Shown piece after piece: positions 42,719 to 59,873 of a DNA stretch of 64,000 nt (its first letter is position 1; each line of letters begins with the position of its first letter). Position numbers and translations under genes: made by a program. The notes under the pieces were generated by a model. The model was not told where the DNA came from and searched no databases. It saw only the letters and a list, made by a program, of their open reading frames with translations. Origin of the DNA: Myxococcales bacterium (GTDB lineage: Bacteria > Myxococcota_A > Polyangia > Haliangiales > Haliangiaceae); contig JADKKI010000028.1 of assembly GCA_016720595.1 (NCBI GenBank), forward strand, positions 62,001 through 126,000, given 5' to 3'.

Positions 42719-44380
42719 ATGCTCCGCCCCTTCCCCTGCCTGTTCACCGTCGCCGCCGCCGCGCTCGCGAGCACCGCGCACGCGGATCCGACCCCGCCCC
42801 CGGCCGTCGCCACCTACGCGATCGTGGTCGGCTCCAATGCCGGAGGTCCCGGGCAGACAGAGCTGCGGTTCGCCGAGGATGACGCGCGCCGCGTGGCGAG
42901 CCTGCTCGGCGAGCTCGGCGGCTACTCCGCCGATGCCATCGACGTGATCGTGCATCCCACGCCGGACCTCGTCCGCGAGCGGCTCGCGCGGCTCTCGACC
43001 CGCGTCAGTGCCGATCTCGCCAACGGGCGGCAGGCCCGCGTGCTGTTCTATTACTCGGGCCACGCCCGCGCGAACGCGCTCGATCTGGGCGATCAGGAGC
43101 TGCCGCTCGTCGAGCTCCGGACCCGCCTGTTCTCCGTCCCCGCAGCGCTCACCGTGGTGGTCCTCGATGCGTGCCAGAGCGGCGCGTTCTCACGGATCAA
43201 GGGCGCCGCCCCCGCCGCGGACTTCTCGTACAACTCGCGGAACCAGCTCGATGCCACCGGCATCGCGGTCCTGGCCTCGTCGAGCGGCAGCGAGCTCTCG
43301 CAGGAGAGCGTCGAGCTGCGCTCGAGCTACTTCACGCATCACCTCCTGGTCGGCATGCGCGGTGCGGGCGATGCGAACCGCGACGGCGCGGTCTCGATCG
43401 ACGAGGCCTATCGCTACGCGTATCACCAGACGCTCCTCGCCACCGCGGAGACCGCGGTCGGCGGCCAGCACGTCAGCCTGGAGGTCGATCTCAAGGGCCA
43501 CGGTGAGATCCCGATGTCGTTCCCGCGCGCGGCGACCGCCTCGATCGAGCTCCCGGCCACCCTCGAGGGCAAGACGCTCGTCGAGGACCGGCGCGCCCAC
43601 GCGGTGGTCGCAGAGACCTACAAGGCCAAGGGCGCTCCGGTTCGGATCGCCGTCGCCCCAGGTGACTACCAGGTGCTCGTGCGCAGCGGCACGCGGCTGC
43701 TCCGGTGCCAGCTCACGGCCGGCCCCGGCGGCTCCACGGTCGATCCGTCTCGCTGTACGAGTGAGGCGATCACCGCCACCACGGCGAAGGGAGGCCGCGC
43801 GCCGTTCGTGCCGCAGCAGCTGATCGAGCTCGCGATGTTCGTCGGGCCAGAGCGGTCCGACGGCTACACCGAAACCCTCGAGAACTTCGGCTATGGCAAA
43901 CCGGGCCTTCCCGTGAGCCGTGGCCTGGCCGCCACCTACCTCCGCCAGCGCTCGTCGCGGCTGTGGCTCGGTGGGTCCGCGAGCTACGAGCAATCGCCGG
44001 AGTGGAGGCGCACGGACAGTGATACCAGCCTGGCAACGGACTGGTCGACGATCCGCGCGATGGCAGTCGTCCGCGGCGTGCAGATGGCCAGCGATCACGG
44101 CTTCTCGTCGCATGTCGGCGTCTACGGCCAGCTCGGTGGCGGCCTCGCCTTGGGGCGCTCCCACTTCAAGGACGCCGACGATATGTGGTCGACCAACACC
44201 GACTTCGGCATTGCCGTCGCCGCGAGCGCCGGCCTCTTGATCCGCAGCACGGTGATCGATCGATTGATCGGCACGTTCGGCTACGAGTTCGCGTACACGC
44301 CCTCGATCACCAACGACATTGGCGATCGCCACGCCAGTGGTGGCCACCGTCTCACCCTCGCCTTCGGCGTCACCTTCTGA
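42719..44380 (+). CDS. Secreted caspase-fold protein with EF-hand and barrel-like C-terminus
   Basis: 553 residues: signal peptide to about 22, then a caspase/metacaspase-type peptidase domain with catalytic His115 (LFYYSGHARANA) and Cys152 (VVLDACQSGAFSR). A textbook EF-hand calcium loop, residues 218-229 (DANRDGAVSIDE), follows within the domain. After a PEGA-like beta stretch, the final 190 residues look like an outer-membrane barrel (ATYLRQRSSRLWLGGSAS, SSHVGVYGQLGGGLALG) and the protein ends in Phe. Calcium-stimulated cleavage of surface proteins is a reasonable guess. Next genes encode a Cys-rich protein, a sigma factor and an anti-sigma. Confidence 0.82.
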   Translation: MLRPFPCLFTVAAAALASTAHADPTPPPAVATYAIVVGSNAGGPGQTELRFAEDDARRVASLLGELGGYSADAIDVIVHPTPDLVRERLARLSTRVSADLANGRQARVLFYYSGHARANALDLGDQELPLVELRTRLFSVPAALTVVVLDACQSGAFSRIKGAAPAADFSYNSRNQLDATGIAVLASSSGSELSQESVELRSSYFTHHLLVGMRGAGDANRDGAVSIDEAYRYAYHQTLLATAETAVGGQHVSLEVDLKGHGEIPMSFPRAATASIELPATLEGKTLVEDRRAHAVVAETYKAKGAPVRIAVAPGDYQVLVRSGTRLLRCQLTAGPGGSTVDPSRCTSEAITATTAKGGRAPFVPQQLIELAMFVGPERSDGYTETLENFGYGKPGLPVSRGLAATYLRQRSSRLWLGGSASYEQSPEWRRTDSDTSLATDWSTIRAMAVVRGVQMASDHGFSSHVGVYGQLGGGLALGRSHFKDADDMWSTNTDFGIAVAASAGLLIRSTVIDRLIGTFGYEFAYTPSITNDIGDRHASGGHRLTLAFGVTF

Positions 44381-44387
44381 GGCCCCC

Positions 44388-45473
44388 ATGCGCGCTCCCC
44401 TGACCTTCATCTTGCTCGTCGCCGCAGCGTCGCAACTCGGCGCCACCGACTGTGGACAGATCACCCGCGACCAAGGCTTCGACCTGTGGTGCGGTGACGT
44501 GCTGTGCACCTGGAAGCTCGAGCGCGGCGAGATCAAGCGCGTGGGCACCTGGAACGAGCACGACTCCGGGGTCGAGATGGTCGGCGAGGACGTGGCGTTC
44601 GAGCAACTCACGCCCGTGACGAGCGGTGACACGACCTGCATCCGGTTCGAGCTCGTCGCGAACGTCGCGGACGACGCCGAGGTCCGGCTCAACGTCGATG
44701 TGTTCGGCGATGGCTCGGTCGAGTTCAGCGAGCGGCTCCCGACCTCGCGGTGGAAGCCGCTGTCCTTCCTGATCCCGATCCGCGCCCCCTACGAGGGCGT
44801 GCGGTTCGAGCTGACCAAGCGCGGTGCCGGCAAGGCCGTGCTCGCGCAGCTCCAGGCCGAGACCGCGCCCAACGAGTGCGAGGGCTTCACGGTGATCGAG
44901 CCGGGTCCCGCGCCGCTCGGTGGTGCGTGCACGGCAAACGATCAGTGCGCGAGCAAGCTGTGCCGGACGGTCGTCGATCCCGAAGCGTGGCTCGGGGTCG
45001 CGCAGCGCTGCGTCGGTTGCGATCCGAGCCTCGGCGCGTTGGCGTGCGCCGGAGGGCAGGTCTGTGGGTTCGGCACACCCGCCTCGCACGTGCTCCATCT
45101 CCCCGTGACCTGCGTGGCGCCGGGGAGCCGTCTGCTCGGCGAGCAGTGCCTCGACGACCCGCAGTGCGCGACCGGCGTGTGCAACGCGTCTGTGTGCTCG
45201 ACCTGCGAGGCCTCCCAGCCGTGCGTCGGCGAGAGCTGCGGCCAGGCCTACGCGAACGGTCCGTTCGTGTGCAGCCCGAACCAGGGCCAGCGCGCGGCCG
45301 GGCAGCCCTGCGCGACCCACGCCGATTGCACGAGCGGCCGCTGCGGCGGTGCGGTGCACGAGCAGTGCGCCAGCGGGCGTGAGTGCTCGAGCCCGGAGCA
45401 ATGCCCCGTCGACGATGGCCTCGCGCCGGGCACCTGTGACACGGTCGGCATCGAGGGTGGACGCTGCGAGTGA
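44388..45473 (+). CDS. Cys-rich secreted protein
   Basis: ATG at 44388 gives a signal peptide (RAPLTFILLVAAASQLGA); earlier in-frame codons are inside the previous gene. The 361-residue product has an N-terminal beta domain of about 170 residues (CTWKLERGEIKRVGTW, AEVRLNVDVFGDG) and then a region with about 24 cysteines in repeated short loops (GGACTANDQCASKLC, GEQCLDDPQCATGVCN, GQPCATHADCTSGRCG). These resemble disulphide-rich stalk domains found in myxobacterial surface proteins. Role unknown; probably structural, in the same operon as the caspase. Confidence 0.75.
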   Translation: MRAPLTFILLVAAASQLGATDCGQITRDQGFDLWCGDVLCTWKLERGEIKRVGTWNEHDSGVEMVGEDVAFEQLTPVTSGDTTCIRFELVANVADDAEVRLNVDVFGDGSVEFSERLPTSRWKPLSFLIPIRAPYEGVRFELTKRGAGKAVLAQLQAETAPNECEGFTVIEPGPAPLGGACTANDQCASKLCRTVVDPEAWLGVAQRCVGCDPSLGALACAGGQVCGFGTPASHVLHLPVTCVAPGSRLLGEQCLDDPQCATGVCNASVCSTCEASQPCVGESCGQAYANGPFVCSPNQGQRAAGQPCATHADCTSGRCGGAVHEQCASGRECSSPEQCPVDDGLAPGTCDTVGIEGGRCE

Positions 45474-45948
45474 TCCCCAGTCGGCCTACCGTGCGTACGG
45501 GCCTGCGCTCGTCCGGAAGGCCGAACGCATCCTCCGCAGTCGCGAGGATGCGACCGATGTCGTGCACGCCCTGTTCGTCGATCTGATCCCCAAGTGGACC
45601 CGTGACGTGGACCTCCCCTACCTCTATCGCGCGATCACCAACCGGTGCCTCAACGTCGTTCGCGACCGAGGCACGCGGGCTCGCCTGCTCGAGAGAGAGC
45701 AGACCGCGGCGGCGCCGATCGCGCGCGTGACTCTCGAAGATCAGGTCGTCGGCGTCGGCCTGATCGGAGCGCTGGCCGAGCGTCTCGACGAAGGCCACCT
45801 CGAGGTCCTGGTGTGCCGGTTCGTCGATGACATGACGCAAGAGGAGATCGCGGAGCACCTGCGCCTGTCCCGCAAGACGATCGGCAAGCGCCTCGATCGC
45901 ATCCGCGACGAGGTGATCAAGCTGCGCGGCGAGGAGGCTGCCTCGTGA
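45457..45948 (+). CDS. ECF-type RNA polymerase sigma factor
   Basis: 163 residues starting at the GTG 17 bp before the previous stop. It has region 2-like sequence (AERILRSREDATDVVHALFVD, YLYRAITNRCLNVVRDRG) and region 4 with a helix-turn-helix (VCRFVDDMTQEEIAEHLRL, SRKTIGKRLDRIRDEV). Directs RNA polymerase to target promoters, probably including those of this operon. The stop overlaps the anti-sigma start (GTGA). No promoter recognisable upstream of the caspase gene could be matched to it. Confidence 0.85.
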   Translation: MDAASDPQSAYRAYGPALVRKAERILRSREDATDVVHALFVDLIPKWTRDVDLPYLYRAITNRCLNVVRDRGTRARLLEREQTAAAPIARVTLEDQVVGVGLIGALAERLDEGHLEVLVCRFVDDMTQEEIAEHLRLSRKTIGKRLDRIRDEVIKLRGEEAAS

Positions 45949-46583
45949 GCGCGCTCCCATGCATCGGCGAGCCGATCTCGTGGCTCAAGCTCGAGCGGTT
46001 CGCGAGTGGCAGCGACGATCGCGCGATCTCCACCCACGTGGCCGCGTGCCCCGCGTGTCGCCACTGTCTCGACGAGATCCGTGGCGACCTGGTGGCGTTG
46101 CCTCCGCTGGCCGTGCCCGAGGCCCCCGCGCGGCGGCGCACGTGGCGGGCGTGGCTGGTCCCCGCGCTGGCGCTCGGGGCTGCCGCGATGATCGCGCTCG
46201 TGATCTGGCGTGACCGCGCGCCCGAGGGAGTGCCCGAGGACACCGTGTACGTCAAAGGCATCGGTGAGGTGGTCCTCGGCGTGGTCCGCGAGCGCGGCGG
46301 GGTGATCCGCGAGGACGTGCACTCGTTCGCTGCCGGCGATCGGTGGAAGCTCGTCGTGACCTGTCCGCCGCAGGGCGCGGCGAGCGTCGTGGTCTCGGTG
46401 ACCGAGGCCGGCGCGCCGACCAGCGATCATCCGCTTCCGCCCGCGACCCTCGCGTGCGGCAACCGCGTGGTGATCCCCGGTGCGTTCACGCTGACCGGAA
46501 CCCGCCCGAACCGGGTGTGCGCGAAGGTCACGAGCCCGGGCGGCGATGCCGGTACGGCGTGCGTGACGATCACGGCCGAGTAG
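45945..46583 (+). CDS. Membrane-bound zinc-finger anti-sigma factor
   Basis: 212 residues, GTG start overlapping the sigma factor by 4 bp. Cytosolic N-terminus with the ZAS metal site H-x3-C-x2-C (STHVAACPACRHC), then one transmembrane helix (LVPALALGAAAMIALVIW) and a periplasmic domain with four Cys (VVTCPPQGAASVV, KVTSPGGDAGTACV). Holds the sigma factor until an envelope signal releases it. The operon arrangement suggests that surface damage or calcium/protease state controls caspase and Cys-rich protein expression. Confidence 0.85.
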   Translation: MSALPCIGEPISWLKLERFASGSDDRAISTHVAACPACRHCLDEIRGDLVALPPLAVPEAPARRRTWRAWLVPALALGAAAMIALVIWRDRAPEGVPEDTVYVKGIGEVVLGVVRERGGVIREDVHSFAAGDRWKLVVTCPPQGAASVVVSVTEAGAPTSDHPLPPATLACGNRVVIPGAFTLTGTRPNRVCAKVTSPGGDAGTACVTITAE

Positions 46584-48516: not shown

Positions 48517-49839
48517 ATGACTACGGATCCGCAAGACGAGGCCTCCCGTGTGACGCTCGAGGCTTGGCTCGTCACCGATGTCGGCATGGTGCGCGAGCAC
48601 AACGAGGACTCGGCGTACATGGAGGCCACGAAGGGCTTCTTCATCGTCGCTGACGGCATGGGCGGCCACGCCGCGGGCGAGGTCGCCTCCGCGATGGCGG
48701 TCGACACCGTCCGCCAGACCCTCGAAGGTGCACGTGTCGAGATCGAGGCCTTCAAGAAGGCGCCGACCGACGCCGGGCGGCGCGGCATCGTGCAGCTCCT
48801 GCAGAACGCGGTGCTCGGTGCGCATCAGGCGGTCTACCAGCGCGGTCAGGCCGAGGCTGACAAGGCCGGCATGGGCACCACGCTCGACGTCGTGCTGGTC
48901 GCCGGCCCCGAGGCGTTCGTCGCCCACGTCGGCGATAGCCGCACGTACCTGATCCGCGACGGCAAGCCCTCGCAGATCACGACCGATCACACCGTGGCCG
49001 AGGTCCTCGTGATCGAGGGCAAGCTGACGATCGAGGAGGCCCAAGTCTCCCCGCTCCGCACGATCCTCGTCAACGCGATCGGCGTCTCGGCGGATGTCGG
49101 CGTCGAGATGGCGCACGTCACGCTGCGCCGCGGCGATCGGCTGCTGCTGTGCTCGGACGGCATGCACGACTACTTCCCTGCGGAAGACGAGATCGCGCAG
49201 CGCCTCAGCGCCGAGGTCGTCGGCAAGGCGCTCGAGGAGATGGTCGAGCTCGCCAAGACGCGTGGCGGCCACGACAACATCACCGGTGTCGCCGTGCAGG
49301 TGATCGAGGTGACCGAGGGCATCCCGTCGAACATGGAAGGCGAGTCGACACAGCCCGTCGAGCTCCCGGGCAACCCGTTCGCCGCCGACGAGCCCACCGA
49401 GACCGCGTTCGCCCCCGTGCCTGGCCTCCCGCCGCGGATGGTCGCGTCGGTGACGCCGCAGACGATGCGCCAGACTCAGCCGATGCGCGTGGTCGGCGAG
49501 GACATGCCCGACGGGCGCGCCGATACGATCCCGCCGCCGAAGGCGAAGGCCGAGGCGAAGAGTGAGGCCAAGGCCGACGCCAAGCCCAAGGCCACGCCCG
49601 ACGACAAGGCAGACGACAAGGCCAAGCCCGACGACAAGGCCAAGCCCGACGGCAAGGCCGACGACAAGGCAGCCGCGAAGGCCGACGACAAGACCGATGC
49701 GAAGGCCGACGACAAGGCAGACGCGAAGGCCGACGACAAGGCCGAGACCACGGACGGCGCGCCGTCCGAGCTGGCGGGCGCCGACACGGGTCGCGTCACG
49801 CTCCCTGTCGATCTCTCCAAGGACAAGGGCGCAGGCTGA
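48517..49839 (+). CDS. PP2C-family protein Ser/Thr phosphatase with repetitive tail
   Basis: 440 residues. Residues 1-260 are a complete PP2C domain: [29 protein letters not shown] with the metal-binding Asp, [33 protein letters not shown] and [13 protein letters not shown]. It removes phosphate from Ser/Thr residues, presumably reversing the kinases encoded here. The last 110 residues are a flexible Pro then Lys/Asp/Ala-rich tail (repeats like [12 protein letters not shown]), unusual for this family. Its stop overlaps the CTG start of the next gene. Confidence 0.92.
49540..49752 (+). repeat. Imperfect Lys-Ala-Asp codon repeats in PP2C tail
   Basis: Encodes irregular repeats of KADDK and KPDDKA types, largely from GACAAGGC and GCGAAGGC units. 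Slippage-prone; length may differ between strains. Confidence 0.7.

Positions 49840-52025: not shown

Positions 52026-52026
<1 letters not shown>
50974..52026 (-). CDS. Secreted TPR/PEGA-domain protein
   Basis: 350 residues with a signal peptide (ALALGLTLGLASLATQLHA). A tetratricopeptide pair (LSSGLKLFAAKDYLGALSVFQ, ILLNIGTTLVKLDRKAEAA) is followed by a PEGA domain (VEVTVTPADAEVQLGTG, VTPGSFTVRARKPGWKPSE), and then a C-terminal domain of about 140 residues with alternating strands like an outer-membrane barrel. Its ATG shares a base with the upstream kinase stop (TGATG), so the kinase and this protein are coupled; it may be a kinase substrate or envelope partner. Confidence 0.8.
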
Positions 52027-53612
<1,586 letters not shown>

Positions 53613-55623: not shown

Positions 55624-58600
55624 TTAGCGAGGCTGCTTCGCCACGAGCAGGCCGCCGACCAGCGTCCATCCAGCGTTCTCGGCCAGCGCCGCGATCTTTG
55701 CGGGTCCTCGGCGCTCGAGATGCACGTCCCACAGGCTGGCGTGCTGGTCCTTCGAGATCACGAGCAGGCGGTCACCGGCTTCGTTGAAGGAGACCCCCGT
55801 GATCGCCTCGTGATGTTCGTGAAAGCTACCGAGCTGGCGCCCCGTGGCGGTGTCCCACAGCCGGACTGCCCCACCGTCGTCGCCGGTCGCGAAGCGGCCT
55901 CCATCTGCACTGAACGCGTACGCATCGCTGACGCCAGCGACCGAGGCCAACATCAGCTGCCGAGGCGTGTCCCACAGGTGCACGACGTGGTTCTCATTCC
56001 TCGTGAGGAGGAAGCGGCCGCTCTGGTCGAAGCTCGCACTGGAGATCGGTGCCGAGTCCTCGAACCGCGAGAGCTCCCGCCCGGTCGCGACCTCGTACAC
56101 GATCGCCAGCCGGCTCTCGGTCCCCGTGACGACGAACGTCCTTCCCGTCGGATCGAACCGAGGCTGGTATTCCTGGCGAGGGCCGACGACTTCGACGGTG
56201 AGGAGCGGCACGCCGGTCGCGACCTGCCACAGCTTGACGTGACGGCCGCTGCCGACCGCGATCCGTTGGCCGTCCGAGCTGATGTCGCCATTCGGCATGG
56301 TCCGCTGCTTGGGAAGCTTGAGCTCGAGGACCGTGCTGCCAGCGGTGGCATCGAACACCCGGACGACATCCTCCAGCTTGTCCCCCACCTGGGCCAGGTC
56401 GAGCACGTAGCGCCCGTCGCCCGAGAGCGTCGAGCTCCAACCTCCCGCGAGCTGCACGGCCGCTGCACCCGTCGAGAGATCCAGCACGCGCGGATGATCC
56501 CCTTCGTGTAGCAGGATCCTCCGTCCATCGCGGCTGACCTCGAGACGCTCGGGGAGCCCCGCTCCGAGCTCGAGATGCCCCACCGCGGCTCCCGAATCCT
56601 GCCGACGGATCGTCGTTCCAGCAGGGGTCGACTCGATCCATCGGCCGCCTGCGACGAACGCCGCGGCGACGGCTGGCACGTGCGTGACCCGATGGCCGAC
56701 CGGCATCCTCCACTCGTGTACGTGTTGTCCCGTCTCCCCGGCCGTCGCGATCCGTGATCCCGTGCGGTCGACCGCTACGAGCTCGGTCGAGCCCGCCACG
56801 ATCGATTGGCGAAGGTCGAGGGACGGGAGCTCCCAGATATCGACCTGCGGGTCGTCTCCAGCCCCGACCAGCACGCCACCTGGTGCAAACACCAGATGAC
56901 TCACGGCCGCCTTCGACTCGGCCAATCTCTCGCCGTCGCGATTCCACAACCGAACCGTCTGGCCGTCGGCGGTCGCGATCAGGTCACCGCTGTCTGTCGC
57001 CGCGATCGCGACGTTCGTTGGTGCAACAAGGACGCGGAGGACACTGGCGGTGTCGATCTGCCAGAGCTCGTCATCGACCACGATCCGATCGGGACCGGCA
57101 AAGGCCAGGACATGCTGAGCCGGGCCGTGTCCACGCAACGGCCTGCCCGATCGCAGGGTCGCGACCTCGGTGAACCGAGTCGTCTCCCACAGCCGCACGC
57201 TGCCATCGACGCCGCACGCTGCCACCAGGCGACCGTCCGGGCTGTACGCGACCTCGACGATGCGCTGCGCTCCCATGTCGAGCGTGGCGACGACGGCTCC
57301 ACTGGCGGCGTCGAACACCGGCGCGCCGTGGATCCCGCCATCCTGGGTGAGCGCGACGAGCTGCTTGCCGGTCGGTGCGAACCAGAGGCGGGTCGATGAC
57401 AGGCTCTCGTCGTCGACGCGCCACTGCCTCGTCCCGTGCTGGATGTCCCACATCTCGAGCCAGTGTTCACCTCCGATAGCGGCATGCTCGACCGCGGGAT
57501 CGAGCTGCGCCGAGCTGAACTCCCTGTCCAGCGCAGTGGAGCTCGTACGCCGGCCATCTCGCCACGTCGACAGCCTGCCAGTGGTCTCGACGAGCACCAG
57601 CTGGCCGTCGGCGGCGAACCCCAGGGTCTCGACCTCGGCGGAGGAGCAGCCAGGATCCGTGCCGCAGGGTGTGGTCAGCTGTGGTGGTGCGATCGTGGAG
57701 CCCGCCAGATCGAGATCTCGGGTCGCGACGGCGAGCAGGTAGCGAAGCGCCGGGGTGTCACGACCGCGGCGGTACGCCTCGCTCGCATAGACGAGACCTC
57801 GCTCTCGATCGCCACCGAGGATCTCGGTCCGCGCTTGTTCCTCGAGTGCCGTCGTCAGGCTCGATTCGGCAGCCACGCGCTGCGCTTGTTCGGAGGCCCG
57901 TGAACGCGTGATGTTCACGACCGCCACGACCGCGCCGGCGGTGAGCGCGACGAACGCGACCAGGCTGACCACCACCGCCGCCCGGTGCCTGCGGATCCAG
58001 CGCGCCATCAGGTCCCGCAGGCGGTAGTCACGGGCCGCGATCAGCTTGCCGGTCTGGAACCGCCGCAGCTCCTCGGCCATCTCCTTGGCACTCGGATAGC
58101 GTGTGGCCATCGGCCCCATCGCACGCTCGACGATCGCCCGCAGATCCGCGGGCACGTCGGGCGCGAGCTCGGAGAGCGGGGTCGGCGGCTTGAGGCGCAC
58201 GAGCTCGACCAGGAGATCGGGCGTGTCGCCGGCATGCTGGTCGTAGTATGGCGCCACCCCGGCGAGCACGTTGTAGAGGATCGATCCAAGCGCGTAGACG
58301 TCGGCCCGCGCGTCCAGCTCGTCTCCGCTCGCTTGCTCGGGCGACATGAACCCGGGCGTGCCGAGCACAGCGCCGGCGCTCGTCAGGTGCGGCGACGAGG
58401 GCACCAGGCTTGGAGACAGCTGCCCCCTCTCGTCGCTCGCTTGATCGATCTCCTTCGCGAGGCCCCAATCGATGACGACGGTCTCGCCGAACGCCCCGAC
58501 GAGCACGTTGCCCGGCTTGAGGTCTCGATGGATGATCCTGCGCGAGTGCGCGTACGCGAGCGCCTCGGTCACGGCGACTACGTGGGGTAACAGCGCGACC

Positions 58601-59103
58601 CGCTCGGACATCGTCGTCGTGTTCTCGATCGACGCGGCGAGCGTTCCTCCATCGACGAGACGCATCGTGTAGAACGCCGAGCCATCCGGCCACACACCCG
58701 CTTCGTAGATCGGAATGATCGCCGGGTGCTGGAGCCTCGCCGTGATCATCGCTTCGCGCTCGAACCGTGCCCGCAGATCCGGATCGAGCACCTCCTTGAT
58801 CGCCACCTCGCGGCCGAGCCTTCGATCGTTCGCACGCGTGATTCGCCCCATCCCGCCGGACGCGATCTCGCGCTGAGCGTCGAAGACGATGGGATCGACG
58901 ACGGGGAGCACGATCGCGTCCGGATCTTCGAACGCATCATCAGGAAGCCGCGCGACCCACCGCCAGTCCTCCCGGCCCTCGGTTGTCAACGCGCGGCACG
59001 CATCGCACTCGGCGAGGTGGCGGCGATACTGGGTCTCCTCGAGGCCCGTCAGCGTGCGTTGATCGCGCGCTGCCATGGCGAGCATGACGTCATCGCAATC
59101 CAC
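55624..59103 (-). CDS. Zinc-finger/Ser-Thr kinase/WD40 fusion protein
   Basis: 1159 residues from a GTG start. N-terminus carries the anti-sigma-type ZAS metal motif H29-x3-C33-x2-C36 (YRRHLAECDACRAL). Kinase domain about 75-355: GGMGRI, AIKEV (Lys103), HRDLKPGN at 192-199, DWG (212-214) in place of DFG, and GTPGFMSPEQ. A transmembrane helix near 380 (AVVVSLVAFVALTAGAVVAVV) leads to an extracytoplasmic WD40 propeller of about 14 blades (SPDGRLVAACGVDGSVRLWE, FSADGGRFATGDDGGAVRLWD). It lies 59 bp downstream of a sigma-like gene. It probably ties outside protein binding to kinase and sigma control. Confidence 0.9.
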   Translation of the reverse strand: MDCDDVMLAMAARDQRTLTGLEETQYRRHLAECDACRALTTEGREDWRWVARLPDDAFEDPDAIVLPVVDPIVFDAQREIASGGMGRITRANDRRLGREVAIKEVLDPDLRARFEREAMITARLQHPAIIPIYEAGVWPDGSAFYTMRLVDGGTLAASIENTTTMSERVALLPHVVAVTEALAYAHSRRIIHRDLKPGNVLVGAFGETVVIDWGLAKEIDQASDERGQLSPSLVPSSPHLTSAGAVLGTPGFMSPEQASGDELDARADVYALGSILYNVLAGVAPYYDQHAGDTPDLLVELVRLKPPTPLSELAPDVPADLRAIVERAMGPMATRYPSAKEMAEELRRFQTGKLIAARDYRLRDLMARWIRRHRAAVVVSLVAFVALTAGAVVAVVNITRSRASEQAQRVAAESSLTTALEEQARTEILGGDRERGLVYASEAYRRGRDTPALRYLLAVATRDLDLAGSTIAPPQLTTPCGTDPGCSSAEVETLGFAADGQLVLVETTGRLSTWRDGRRTSSTALDREFSSAQLDPAVEHAAIGGEHWLEMWDIQHGTRQWRVDDESLSSTRLWFAPTGKQLVALTQDGGIHGAPVFDAASGAVVATLDMGAQRIVEVAYSPDGRLVAACGVDGSVRLWETTRFTEVATLRSGRPLRGHGPAQHVLAFAGPDRIVVDDELWQIDTASVLRVLVAPTNVAIAATDSGDLIATADGQTVRLWNRDGERLAESKAAVSHLVFAPGGVLVGAGDDPQVDIWELPSLDLRQSIVAGSTELVAVDRTGSRIATAGETGQHVHEWRMPVGHRVTHVPAVAAAFVAGGRWIESTPAGTTIRRQDSGAAVGHLELGAGLPERLEVSRDGRRILLHEGDHPRVLDLSTGAAAVQLAGGWSSTLSGDGRYVLDLAQVGDKLEDVVRVFDATAGSTVLELKLPKQRTMPNGDISSDGQRIAVGSGRHVKLWQVATGVPLLTVEVVGPRQEYQPRFDPTGRTFVVTGTESRLAIVYEVATGRELSRFEDSAPISSASFDQSGRFLLTRNENHVVHLWDTPRQLMLASVAGVSDAYAFSADGGRFATGDDGGAVRLWDTATGRQLGSFHEHHEAITGVSFNEAGDRLLVISKDQHASLWDVHLERRGPAKIAALAENAGWTLVGGLLVAKQPR

Positions 59104-59162
59104 GACCTACGATGTCCTGGTCCGGGGCTGGCGGCAAGCCTGAGCGCCTCGATCGGGTGCGT

Positions 59163-59873
59163 CTAGACGGCCTCGCCACCAAAGCCTCGGGCACGCAACA
59201 ACTCCTCGATGTAACGGACGGTCAGCTCCACCTCGCGCAGCGTGCGCCCGACGCGCTTCGCGGTCTCGGCATAGGTGGAACCGTCGAGCACCGAGGACAG
59301 GACGGTCAGGTACTCCTCGCCCCGAGCGATGACACGACGGACGTGAACGCGCGGGACGCCCCAGTCGAGGGCGAGGCTCGAGATCGCATCGTCGCCGTGG
59401 GCTCGATGTTCCGTTGCTGCGCGATCGACCAGCTCGCGGACGAACGCGCTGACCTCGGCGCGCTTCTGCAGGAGCGAGCTCGGGTCGGCCGCGACGTGCT
59501 CGCCCGACGTGTAACTCGCGAGCGAGATCCAGCGCGGCGCGCGGTTGGCATTCCCTCGCTCGAACTCGGGGTGCTCGCGCATGTAGTCGATCGCGGACCT
59601 CCGCACGAGAACGCGCAGCCAGGCAGAGAGCACCGGGGGCGGCTCGAGCGCGCAGAGCTTGCGAACCGCCGCGTAGTTCTTGGCGTGGAGTCGTGCGAGC
59701 ACCCGGGTCACGATCTCTCGCGGCGTGTCCTCGCGATCCCGCAGCCGACCGATCGGTTGTCGCTTCGAGATTGCGGCCAGCTCGGGCTCGAGCTCGAGCA
59801 CCAGCGCCTGCCACGCGACATCGCCCGTGGCCGCGACGGCCCGACACAGCTCCCACAACCGGGTGTCGTCCAC
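59163..59873 (-). CDS. Divergent ECF-type RNA polymerase sigma factor
   Basis: 236 residues, GTG start. The N-terminal half matches sigma region 2 in pattern (LRDREDTPREIVTRVLARLHA, LSAWLRVLVRRSAIDYMRE), and the C-terminal half matches a region-4 helix-turn-helix (YLTVLSSVLDGSTYAETAKR, VGRTLREVELTVRYIEEL). Similarity is weaker than in the 45.5-kb sigma gene. Being next to the ZAS-carrying kinase, it is the likely client held by that zinc finger. Regulon unknown. Confidence 0.7.
   Translation of the reverse strand: MDDTRLWELCRAVAATGDVAWQALVLELEPELAAISKRQPIGRLRDREDTPREIVTRVLARLHAKNYAAVRKLCALEPPPVLSAWLRVLVRRSAIDYMREHPEFERGNANRAPRWISLASYTSGEHVAADPSSLLQKRAEVSAFVRELVDRAATEHRAHGDDAISSLALDWGVPRVHVRRVIARGEEYLTVLSSVLDGSTYAETAKRVGRTLREVELTVRYIEELLRARGFGGEAV

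What the first reader, a model, noticed from the sequence alone, without database searches (positions are those of the whole stretch)
55624..59873. Sigma factor plus kinase that carries its own anti-sigma zinc finger and an outside WD40 sensor
The 1159-residue protein has H-x3-C-x2-C at residues 29-36 before a Ser/Thr kinase domain, a transmembrane helix and about 14 WD40 blades, and lies 59 bp after a divergent sigma factor gene. In known anti-sigma factors this zinc motif grips the sigma factor. A single protein could therefore bind an outside ligand, phosphorylate, and hold or release its sigma. The kinase has DWG instead of DFG.
Basis: partly seen in the sequence, partly recalled or inferred. 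Interest (0 to 1): 0.72.

Follow-up and report, generated by a model that had tools for sequence, protein, structure and literature searches.

The report
Kinase with built-in anti-sigma domain
A soil bacterium of the myxobacterial kind makes a membrane protein that joins a zinc domain of the kind that holds gene switches back, a protein kinase and a sensor in one chain, beside the gene for the switch it probably holds; many relatives keep the pairing, and whether the zinc domain really grips the switch can now be tested.

Summary
A 236-residue sigma factor (59163-59873, -) is followed 59 bp later on the same strand by a 1159-residue protein: C3...H29-x3-C33-x2-C36, Ser/Thr kinase (76-327), one transmembrane helix, WD40 repeats. 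By fold the sigma is of ECF type, although no family model calls it. The zinc domain is an anti-sigma (ZAS/class I) domain by profile: the six best of eight PDB hits include RslA, DdvA, RsiW and ChrR. The pairing recurs: of 45 related sigma loci, 22 have a zinc-finger kinase within 2.5 kb, 8 a finger ORF without kinase, 7 a kinase without finger, 8 none. Finger distances follow the sigma more closely than kinase-domain distances do (0.76 against 0.63). A second sigma family, Sig-70_gmx1, shows it in 16 of 30 loci. Against: 8 of 26 listed finger-type kinases had no sigma neighbour, and a tethered structure model did not dock the parts (pTM 0.46). DWG is ordinary here. Best reading: a membrane anti-sigma factor with a kinase inserted between grip and sensor; binding, zinc and activity are untested.

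The parts
59163..59873 (-). ECF-fold sigma factor gene, 236 aa (sigma2 about 1-110, sigma4 probably about 131-236)
59724..59726 (-). Codon of T50 of the sigma factor, in or beside the core-binding acidic motif of sigma2.2; candidate phosphosite or helix cap
   Evidence: T 60, S 60, gap 1 of 121 sequences; register against DxxD ambiguous
55624..59103 (-). Zinc-finger Ser/Thr kinase with transmembrane helix and WD40 repeats, 1159 aa
   Evidence: ORF; Pfam; motifs
58990..59103 (-). Anti-sigma (ZAS/class I) zinc domain, residues 1-38: C3, H29, C33, C36
   Evidence: profile matches to RslA, DdvA, RsiW, ChrR; the corresponding domain of the relative L035 passes the zf-HC2 cut-off, 32.5 over 22.2 bits
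58930..58971 (-). Candidate fourth helix after the finger, residues 45-58 (EDWRWVARLPDDAF), the part that binds sigma2 in known class I anti-sigma factors
   Evidence: similar W-R-W segment in L028, L136, L137 and in part L103, L138; role of helix 4 from PMC7406223 (passages)
58123..58878 (-). Ser/Thr kinase domain, residues 76-327
   Evidence: PF00069 E 1.2e-32; catalytic motifs
57913..57981 (-). Predicted transmembrane helix, about residues 375-397, preceded by RWIRRHR
   Evidence: hydropathy; orientation inferred from positive charges before it
55654..57726 (-). WD40 repeat region, about residues 460-1150, inferred periplasmic
   Evidence: Pfam WD40 and beta-propeller families; exact limits and side of membrane inferred

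Best explanation
The protein is a membrane anti-sigma factor into which a Ser/Thr kinase has been inserted between the sigma-gripping zinc domain and the transmembrane sensor. At rest the N-terminal ZAS domain (zinc held by C3, H29, C33, C36; perhaps with the following W-R-W helix) sequesters the neighbouring ECF sigma factor at the inner membrane. A signal at the periplasmic WD40 propellers changes the kinase state; phosphorylation in cis (ZAS domain or its linker to the kinase) or of the bound sigma weakens the grip and frees the sigma. Shown here: fold of the sigma (sigma2 clearly), profile identity of the finger, intact kinase motifs, recurrent pairing, and co-variation of finger and sigma. 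Inferred: zinc binding, inhibition, topology, and the link from kinase activity to release.
For: Finger = anti-sigma domain: PDB profile search, six best of eight hits at E <= 10 are RslA (3hug, name recalled) 2.4e-6, DdvA 2.1e-5, RsiW 6.9e-5, a CHAT-domain protein 2.7e-4, ChrR twice 5e-4 (46 rows, 44 from kinases and 2 from kinase-less partners); with 11 close kinases only, RslA, DdvA, RsiW and ChrR twice lead at 0.0011-0.0078. NCBIfam anti-sigma models hit the fingers of L174, L186, L035 below cut-off, and do not hit the finger-less kinases L101 and L082. Three-helix fold with H275, C279, C282 across helices 2 and 3 of the modelled L103 chain, the place named for class I domains in PMC7406223 (passage). 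Neighbourhood: 22 of 45 sigma loci with a zinc-finger kinase and 8 of 45 with a finger ORF without kinase within 2.5 kb; 20 control stretches around finger-less kinases hold no finger ORF by the same pattern (0 of 20) and a sigma in 0, or 1 counting a weak partial hit, of 20. L083, L084 and L088 show two fingers and, by eye, a transmembrane stretch but no kinase; L083 has PEGA and zf-HC2 over cut-off, L088 TPR and zf-HC2 below cut-off, the cut stretch of L084 given to Pfam had no significant family. Second sigma family: 16 of 30 Sig-70_gmx1 loci. Co-variation: sigma-finger 0.76 against sigma-kinase domain 0.63 in 21 pairs, partial 0.58 against 0.24, 0 of 2000 permutations; in 12 close pairs 0.81 against 0.64. 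The same window holds a kinase-less ECF sigma overlapping a finger-motif protein, 45349-46583.
Against: The tethered sigma-finger model gave pTM 0.46, no better than the window sigma alone at 0.49: no docking. Of 26 listed finger-type kinase matches, 8 lacked an adjacent sigma; one of these (L141) lacks the motif too, one (L136) is cut about 0.7 kb upstream by the contig end, one (L145) has a sigma about 3 kb away; six neighbouring proteins of such loci matched no sigma model. 7 of 45 sigma loci have a kinase without finger, so in these the finger is dispensable. In G001 the sigma lies beside a finger-less kinase while the finger kinase is on another contig (L001, L136). In gmx1 only 16 of 30 loci show the pair and the co-variation is weak: 0.23, 49 of 2000 permutations. 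Helix 4 is not recognisable in many relatives. No measurement of binding, zinc or kinase activity was found.
Confidence: 0.6

Rival explanations
1. The finger is a docking handle, not an inhibitor: it holds the sigma to the kinase so that it can be phosphorylated and activated, as in ECF43 pairs, for example at T/S50 in sigma2.2 or the serines of the sigma2-sigma4 linker.
For: Residue 50 is T in 60, S in 60 and a gap in 1 of 121 sequences; S117 is S in 120 and S123 in 121 of 121. In EcfK/PknS, T51 in sigma2.2 and T106 in the linker are among five phosphorylated residues and matter for activation (PMC13147305, passages). 7 of 45 relatives pair with a kinase that has no finger.
Against: Finger ORFs without kinase in 8 of 45 loci make sense only if the finger does something without a kinase; three of these are short ORFs on the opposite strand and were not studied further. 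T/S50 is also the first residue of a helix in the model, so S/T may be a helix cap; several sigma relatives that pair with finger kinases have D, A or V there. An acidic D-x-E-D stands just before it.
Confidence: 0.22
2. The finger acts on another sigma or other partner in trans, and adjacency reflects shared ancestry of the operon only.
For: Finger kinases without an adjacent sigma exist (L137, L138, L139, L142, L144).
Against: Two sigma families that do not match each other's models, both gene orders and both orientations keep the neighbourhood, and in the window's family the finger follows the sigma better than the kinase domain of the same protein does.
Confidence: 0.1
3. The zinc motif is a remnant or a general redox or structural knob of the kinase with no sigma partner.
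For: The window protein misses the curated anti-sigma cut-off and zf-HC2 is not among the Pfam families shown.
Against: A first ligand at the expected place (C at -23 to -27, or x-H-P) in 47 of 51; the profile finds anti-sigma factors rather than other zinc proteins in the PDB; finger-free control kinases have a sigma nearby in 0, or 1 counting a weak partial hit, of 20.
Confidence: 0.06

Closest known systems
Class I anti-sigma factors (ZAS/ASDI: RsiW, ChrR, RslA, DdvA, RsrA)
   Same: N-terminal short helical domain with C/H...H-x3-C-x2-C, gene beside an ECF sigma, often a transmembrane helix and an outside domain; profile match
   Different: A full Ser/Thr kinase domain lies between the ZAS domain and the membrane; the passages and part 1 of section 6 of PMC7406223 that I read name no such fusion
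ECF43 sigma/kinase pairs (EcfP/PknT, EcfK/PknS)
   Same: ECF sigma gene beside a transmembrane Ser/Thr kinase gene; PknS too has about 81 residues of predicted helices before the kinase (PMC13147305, passage)
   Different: [quoted passage not shown] here a ZAS domain is present and a D-x-E-D stretch is kept
STPK-linked ECF59, 61, 62, 217, 283 (Planctomycetes, Actinobacteria)
   Same: proposed kinase control from gene neighbourhood, acidic motif kept (PMC8999054, passages)
   Different: Whether their kinases carry ZAS domains was not tested here; the 2021 classification paper is not held
Membrane kinases with WD40 or TPR arrays (Planctomycetota, Myxococcota)
   Same: kinase inside, repeats mostly predicted in the periplasm, single-spanning (PMC11032199, passages)
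   Different: The word zinc does not occur in that paper; in the passages read an ECF domain is mentioned only as combined with WD40 in other proteins

Membership tests
Class I anti-sigma domain (ZAS/ASDI) | H-x3-C-x2-C across helices 2 and 3 of a three-helix bundle | tested here: met
   Motif at 29-36; model of the related L103 chain has helices 251-260, 266-278, 280-287 with H275, C279, C282 (block pLDDT 77-86). Prediction, not a solved structure
Class I anti-sigma domain (ZAS/ASDI) | Sequence relation to known anti-sigma domains | tested here: met
   PDB profile searches; zf-HC2 over cut-off in the L035 relative
Class I anti-sigma domain (ZAS/ASDI) | Window protein passes a curated zinc-finger or anti-sigma model by itself | tested here: inconclusive
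   zf-HC2 not among the 25 of 43 Pfam families shown; NF052368 11.6 bits, cut-off 50; zf-HC2 passes in L035, sub-threshold in L002, L044, L140, not listed for L030
Class I anti-sigma domain (ZAS/ASDI) | Helix 4 after a flexible linker, binding sigma2 | tested here: inconclusive
   W-R-W segment in the window clade; low pLDDT in the model there
Class I anti-sigma domain (ZAS/ASDI) | Encoded beside an ECF sigma gene | tested here: met
   22 of 45 related loci as kinase, 8 of 45 as finger ORF without kinase
Class I anti-sigma domain (ZAS/ASDI) | Binds and inhibits its sigma | not testable with these tools
   No complex prediction offered; tethered chain inconclusive, pTM 0.46
ECF sigma factor | sigma2 domain | tested here: met
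   [not shown]
ECF sigma factor | sigma4 domain after a linker, nothing else | tested here: inconclusive
   236 aa; alignments to whole sigmaE chains span 2-200 and 4-235 but at rmsd near 19, so the two halves are not in the same relative place
ECF sigma factor | Passes TIGR02937 sigma70-ECF | tested here: inconclusive
   13.6 bits, cut-off 42.9: diverged beyond the model
ECF43 (kinase-activated sigma) | Neighbouring Ser/Thr kinase gene | tested here: met
ECF43 (kinase-activated sigma) | No anti-sigma partner | tested here: not met
   ZAS-type domain in the kinase
ECF43 (kinase-activated sigma) | Acidic DxxD of sigma2.2 replaced by hydroxyl residues | tested here: inconclusive
   D46-x-E48-D49 kept, T/S50 next; register ambiguous
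Sig-70_gmx1 (TIGR03001) | Curated model match | tested here: not met
   Window sigma has no TIGR03001 match at E <= 1; L140 sigma does, 201 over 154.6 bits

The most novel reading that the evidence does not exclude
A one-protein writer and holder: the kinase that carries the anti-sigma domain phosphorylates the sigma it holds at the T/S50 beside the core-binding motif (and/or S117/S123), so the same act that breaks the ZAS grip also arms the sigma for RNA polymerase. It would be a general myxobacterial signalling class used by at least two sigma families; one genome alone has 15 Sig-70_gmx1 matches, 12 over the cut-off.
Probability: 0.2. Interest if true: 0.82.

Novelty: new variant of a known kind. 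Interest (0 to 1): 0.62.

Why it matters
A review lists several ECF groups that sit beside Ser/Thr kinases yet keep the acidic motif, and says their mechanism needs characterisation (PMC8999054, passages). An anti-sigma domain inside the kinase gives a concrete, testable answer for one set of such pairs, and a natural series (finger plus kinase, finger alone, kinase alone beside related sigmas) to test it with. It also warns annotators: where a source gives the relatives a name it is protein kinase, TPR protein, Bud32 or hypothetical protein, and zf-HC2 is absent from the precomputed domain lists as far as they are shown (some are cut).

Tried and rejected
Structure of a sigma/N-terminus complex: no multi-chain tool. 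I used the one locus I noticed in the window's family where sigma stop and kinase start lie in one frame (L103) and read the stop as a residue; pTM 0.46 against 0.49 for the window sigma alone, so no support for docking; Foldseek of that model lists sigma chains first. Alignments A5, A7, A8 and A10 put the finger rows on the sigma and were discarded; A9, with 6 sigma and 12 finger rows besides the tethered chain, was the one used, so that alignment is thin (19 rows).

Phylum-wide sigma search found 10 of 377 genomes, but only 7 candidates per genome were scored, so it is not a measure of spread. Pfam on the window sigma: nothing at E <= 1. PDB by sequence for the sigma: nothing at E <= 10; for the finger as a single sequence: two chance hits.

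The idea that DWG marks a special kinase: rejected, 20 of 20 control kinases have it; these were picked for similarity to a profile whose rows are mostly DWG, and other kinases in the loci have DFG. The finger's absence in those 20 is by selection (profile matches starting at position 43 or later); only the lack of sigma neighbours and of finger ORFs is informative, and some of these stretches are short (3.4-11 kb). Likewise H29, C33, C36 are invariant in A2 and A4 because rows were picked by that motif; the first ligand was not part of that choice.

The idea that T/S50 proves a phosphoswitch: kept only as a lead, because a helix cap explains it equally well.

Literature: searches found no paper describing an anti-sigma zinc domain fused to a Ser/Thr kinase; the library lacks most subscription papers, including the 2021 ECF reclassification and the 2012 Planctomycetes survey, so priority is not established.


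Full report
What is there. The window is from a high-G+C bacterium (67-73% G+C) whose nearest named relatives are Kofleriaceae assemblies (names). At 59873-59163 (-) lies a 236-residue ORF and at 59103-55624 (-) a 1159-residue ORF, both GTG starts, 59 bp apart, same strand, sigma first. The large protein has C3, H29-x3-C33-x2-C36, a kinase domain at 76-327 with VAIK, HRDLKP and DWG, a hydrophobic stretch around 375-397 after RWIRRHR, and a WD40 region to near the end. That the repeats lie in the periplasm is inferred from one helix and the charges before it, as is usual for such kinases (PMC11032199, passages).

The N-terminus of the kinase is an anti-sigma zinc domain. I aligned 46 finger segments (44 from kinases, 2 from kinase-less partners) and searched 177,635 PDB sequences: eight hits at E <= 10, the first six being RslA (3hug, labelled only 'probable conserved membrane protein'; the name RslA is recalled), DdvA, RsiW, a CHAT-domain protein and ChrR twice, E 2.4e-6 to 5.2e-4. 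With 11 close kinases only, the first five are RslA, DdvA, RsiW and ChrR twice at 0.0011-0.0078. Rows were chosen by H-x3-C-x2-C, so those three positions are conserved by choice. The upstream ligand was not: a C stands 23-27 residues before the H in 34 of 51 fingers, the start reads x-H-P-[STP] in 13, and 4 fit neither rule (L093, L185, L192, L180). One relative's finger passes the Pfam zf-HC2 cut-off (L035, 32.5 against 22.2 bits); those of L002, L044 and L140 are sub-threshold and L030 has none listed. NCBIfam anti-sigma models touch the fingers of L174, L186 and L035 below cut-off and do not touch two finger-less kinases, L101 and L082.

The pairing recurs. From I took every listed sigma place, 45 loci besides the window (two of them, L036 and L105, may be halves of one gene on two contigs). 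An automatic tally within 2.5 kb gives a zinc-finger kinase in 22 of 45, a finger ORF without kinase in 8 of 45 (five on the sigma's strand, three short ones on the other), a kinase without finger in 7 of 45 (one of these, L102, also has a finger ORF 2.1 kb off), none in 8 of 45. Of the last 8, two are cut by a contig end (L036, L104), one is a fragment (L032), one has a kinase cut by a contig end (L090), L030 has a finger kinase about 1.7 kb upstream, and L089, L093 and L099 have a finger kinase tail-to-tail with the sigma, gene ends about 0.5-0.6 kb apart, whose finger lies further than 2.5 kb off. Gene order and direction vary: sigma then kinase, kinase then sigma (L080), or opposite strands. 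These loci were found by sigma alone, so the finger was not selected for.

From the kinase side the picture is less clean. In one search (35 genomes; the list is cut) 26 of the listed matches to the finger-kinase profile reach into the finger (start at position 26 or lower). 18 of these 26 have a sigma gene as neighbour (three of them tail-to-tail, one a Sig-70_gmx1); for 8 I found none adjacent in the stretches fetched: L136 (contig starts about 0.7 kb upstream), L137, L138, L139, L142, L144, L145 (a sigma about 3 kb away) and L141, which lacks the motif. A scan of six neighbouring proteins of L136-L139, L142 and L144 with NCBIfam met no sigma model; the L145 sigma itself meets none either, so a diverged sigma could be missed. 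The profile was built partly from the paired loci, which favours them. As control, the 20 best matches starting at position 43 or later, kinases of the same DWG type without finger, have a sigma nearby in 0 of 20, or 1 of 20 if one weak partial hit in L148 is counted, and a finger ORF by the pattern in 0 of 20, in 185 kb.

A second sigma family has the same partner. L140, reached from a finger kinase, has upstream a sigma that matches TIGR03001 Sig-70_gmx1 at 201 bits, cut-off 154.6, overlapping the kinase gene by 4 bp. In 95 genomes of the phylum TIGR03001 was found in 10 at E <= 1e-20, in 9 over the cut-off (15 matches in G002, 12 over the cut-off). Of the 30 loci returned, with at most about 1.5 kb on either side, 16 have a kinase with the finger ahead of it; 4 more show a finger-like motif in some other ORF (L173, L183, L187, L194), not checked further; 10 show neither.

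The finger, not just the operon, follows the sigma. For 21 pairs (the window and 20 of the 22 loci; L098 and L105, with partial sigma, left out) the pairwise distances of sigma and finger correlate at 0.76, sigma and kinase domain at 0.63; given the kinase domain the finger keeps 0.58, given the finger the kinase domain keeps 0.24; 0 of 2000 permutations reach 0.76. In 12 close pairs the values are 0.81, 0.64, 0.67 and 0.15. In 16 gmx1 pairs the finger gives only 0.23 (49 of 2000 permutations) and the kinase domain -0.01. Permutation ignores relatedness, and a 41-residue segment is a blunt gauge. For comparison, 0.82 is reported for ECF and class I anti-sigma pairs against 0.5-0.6 for unrelated pairs (PMC7406223, part 1 of section 6).

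A natural domain-swap series speaks to mechanism. Beside related sigmas stand (i) finger-kinase proteins with WD40 or other ends, some with two fingers (L033, L035, L039, L098, L105); (ii) finger proteins without kinase: L083 with PEGA and zf-HC2 over cut-off, L088 with TPR and zf-HC2 below cut-off, L084 with no significant Pfam family in the cut stretch scanned, all three with two finger motifs and, by eye, a membrane helix; (iii) kinases without finger, some with several membrane helices by eye (L038, L081, L082). The finger is therefore kept where there is no kinase, which fits an anti-sigma role, and the kinase is kept where there is no finger, which fits direct phosphorylation in those cases. 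The same window carries a plain case like (ii): an ECF sigma at 45349-45948 (TIGR02937, 58.9 over 42.9 bits) overlapping by 4 bp a 212-residue protein with a finger motif and, by eye, a membrane helix, whose anti-sigma model matches are weak (E 0.13-0.2).

What would let the sigma go. The kinase motifs are intact, so activity is likely. In known cases an anti-sigma factor is phosphorylated to release its sigma (by PknB, PMC8999054, passage), or the sigma itself is phosphorylated (EcfK by PknS, T51 and T106 among five sites, PMC13147305, passages). Here sigma residue 50 is T in 60 and S in 60 of 121 sequences (the window and all 120 listed), with P51 in 119, S117 in 120 and S123 in 121. Residue 50 starts a helix in the model, so this may be a helix cap; whether it aligns with the first Asp of the core-binding DxxD or lies just after D46-x-E48-D49 is ambiguous. 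I treat it as a lead only.

What failed. A single-chain tether of sigma and finger from L103, where the two genes are in frame across one stop codon, gave a well-formed three-helix finger but pTM 0.46, so it does not support docking; the alignment was thin (19 rows).

Verdict. I put the full mechanism at 0.6. It is a new variant: both modules are known; their fusion was not found described in the papers searched, with the caveat that key subscription papers are not held.

Noticed in passing
window 45349-46583 (+): An ordinary ECF sigma gene (TIGR02937 over cut-off) overlapping by 4 bp a kinase-less protein with a finger motif and, by eye, a membrane helix; two ORFs downstream of a caspase-domain protein at 42719-44380 (PF00656).
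   Followed up: partly
L140 4823-8448 and L166-L195: Sig-70_gmx1 (TIGR03001) sigmas, 15 matches in genome G002; 16 of 30 fetched loci have a zinc-finger kinase beside them; sources name relatives of the L140 kinase TPR protein, protein kinase or Bud32.
   Followed up: partly
L033, L035, L039, L098, L105: Kinases with two anti-sigma-type fingers in tandem before the kinase domain; the kinase-less partners L083, L084, L088 also have two.
   Followed up: partly
L042, L044, L087, L089, L091-L094, L097, L099, L142, L144, L145: A group of zinc-finger kinases whose first zinc ligand looks like His (MxHP...) instead of Cys.
   Followed up: partly
L145 3079-3309 (-) (same place as in L096), L095, L100: Short ORFs (76 aa in L145) that hold only the finger, on the strand opposite a sigma gene, with no kinase next to them; the kinase seems lost while the finger stays.
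   Followed up: no
L038, L081, L082, L101, L102: Related sigma genes beside kinases without finger; L038, L081 and L082 look multi-helix in the membrane before the kinase domain.
   Followed up: no
window 59724-59726: Sigma residue 50 is T or S in equal numbers (60/60 of 121) and is followed by Pro: phosphosite or helix cap.
   Followed up: partly
L103 2331-2339: Sigma stop TGA and kinase ATG lie in one reading frame with three bases between them, so a read-through would fuse sigma and kinase.
   Followed up: partly
PMC13147305 (PknS of an ECF43 pair): Its first 81 residues are predicted as three to four helices before the kinase, with no function given in the passages read; they might be a zinc-less anti-sigma-like domain.
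   Followed up: no
window 52026-53612 (-) and 48517-49839 (+): A second Ser/Thr kinase without finger and with a PAD/KP repeat tail, and a PP2C-type phosphatase, both within 11 kb of the pair.
   Followed up: no
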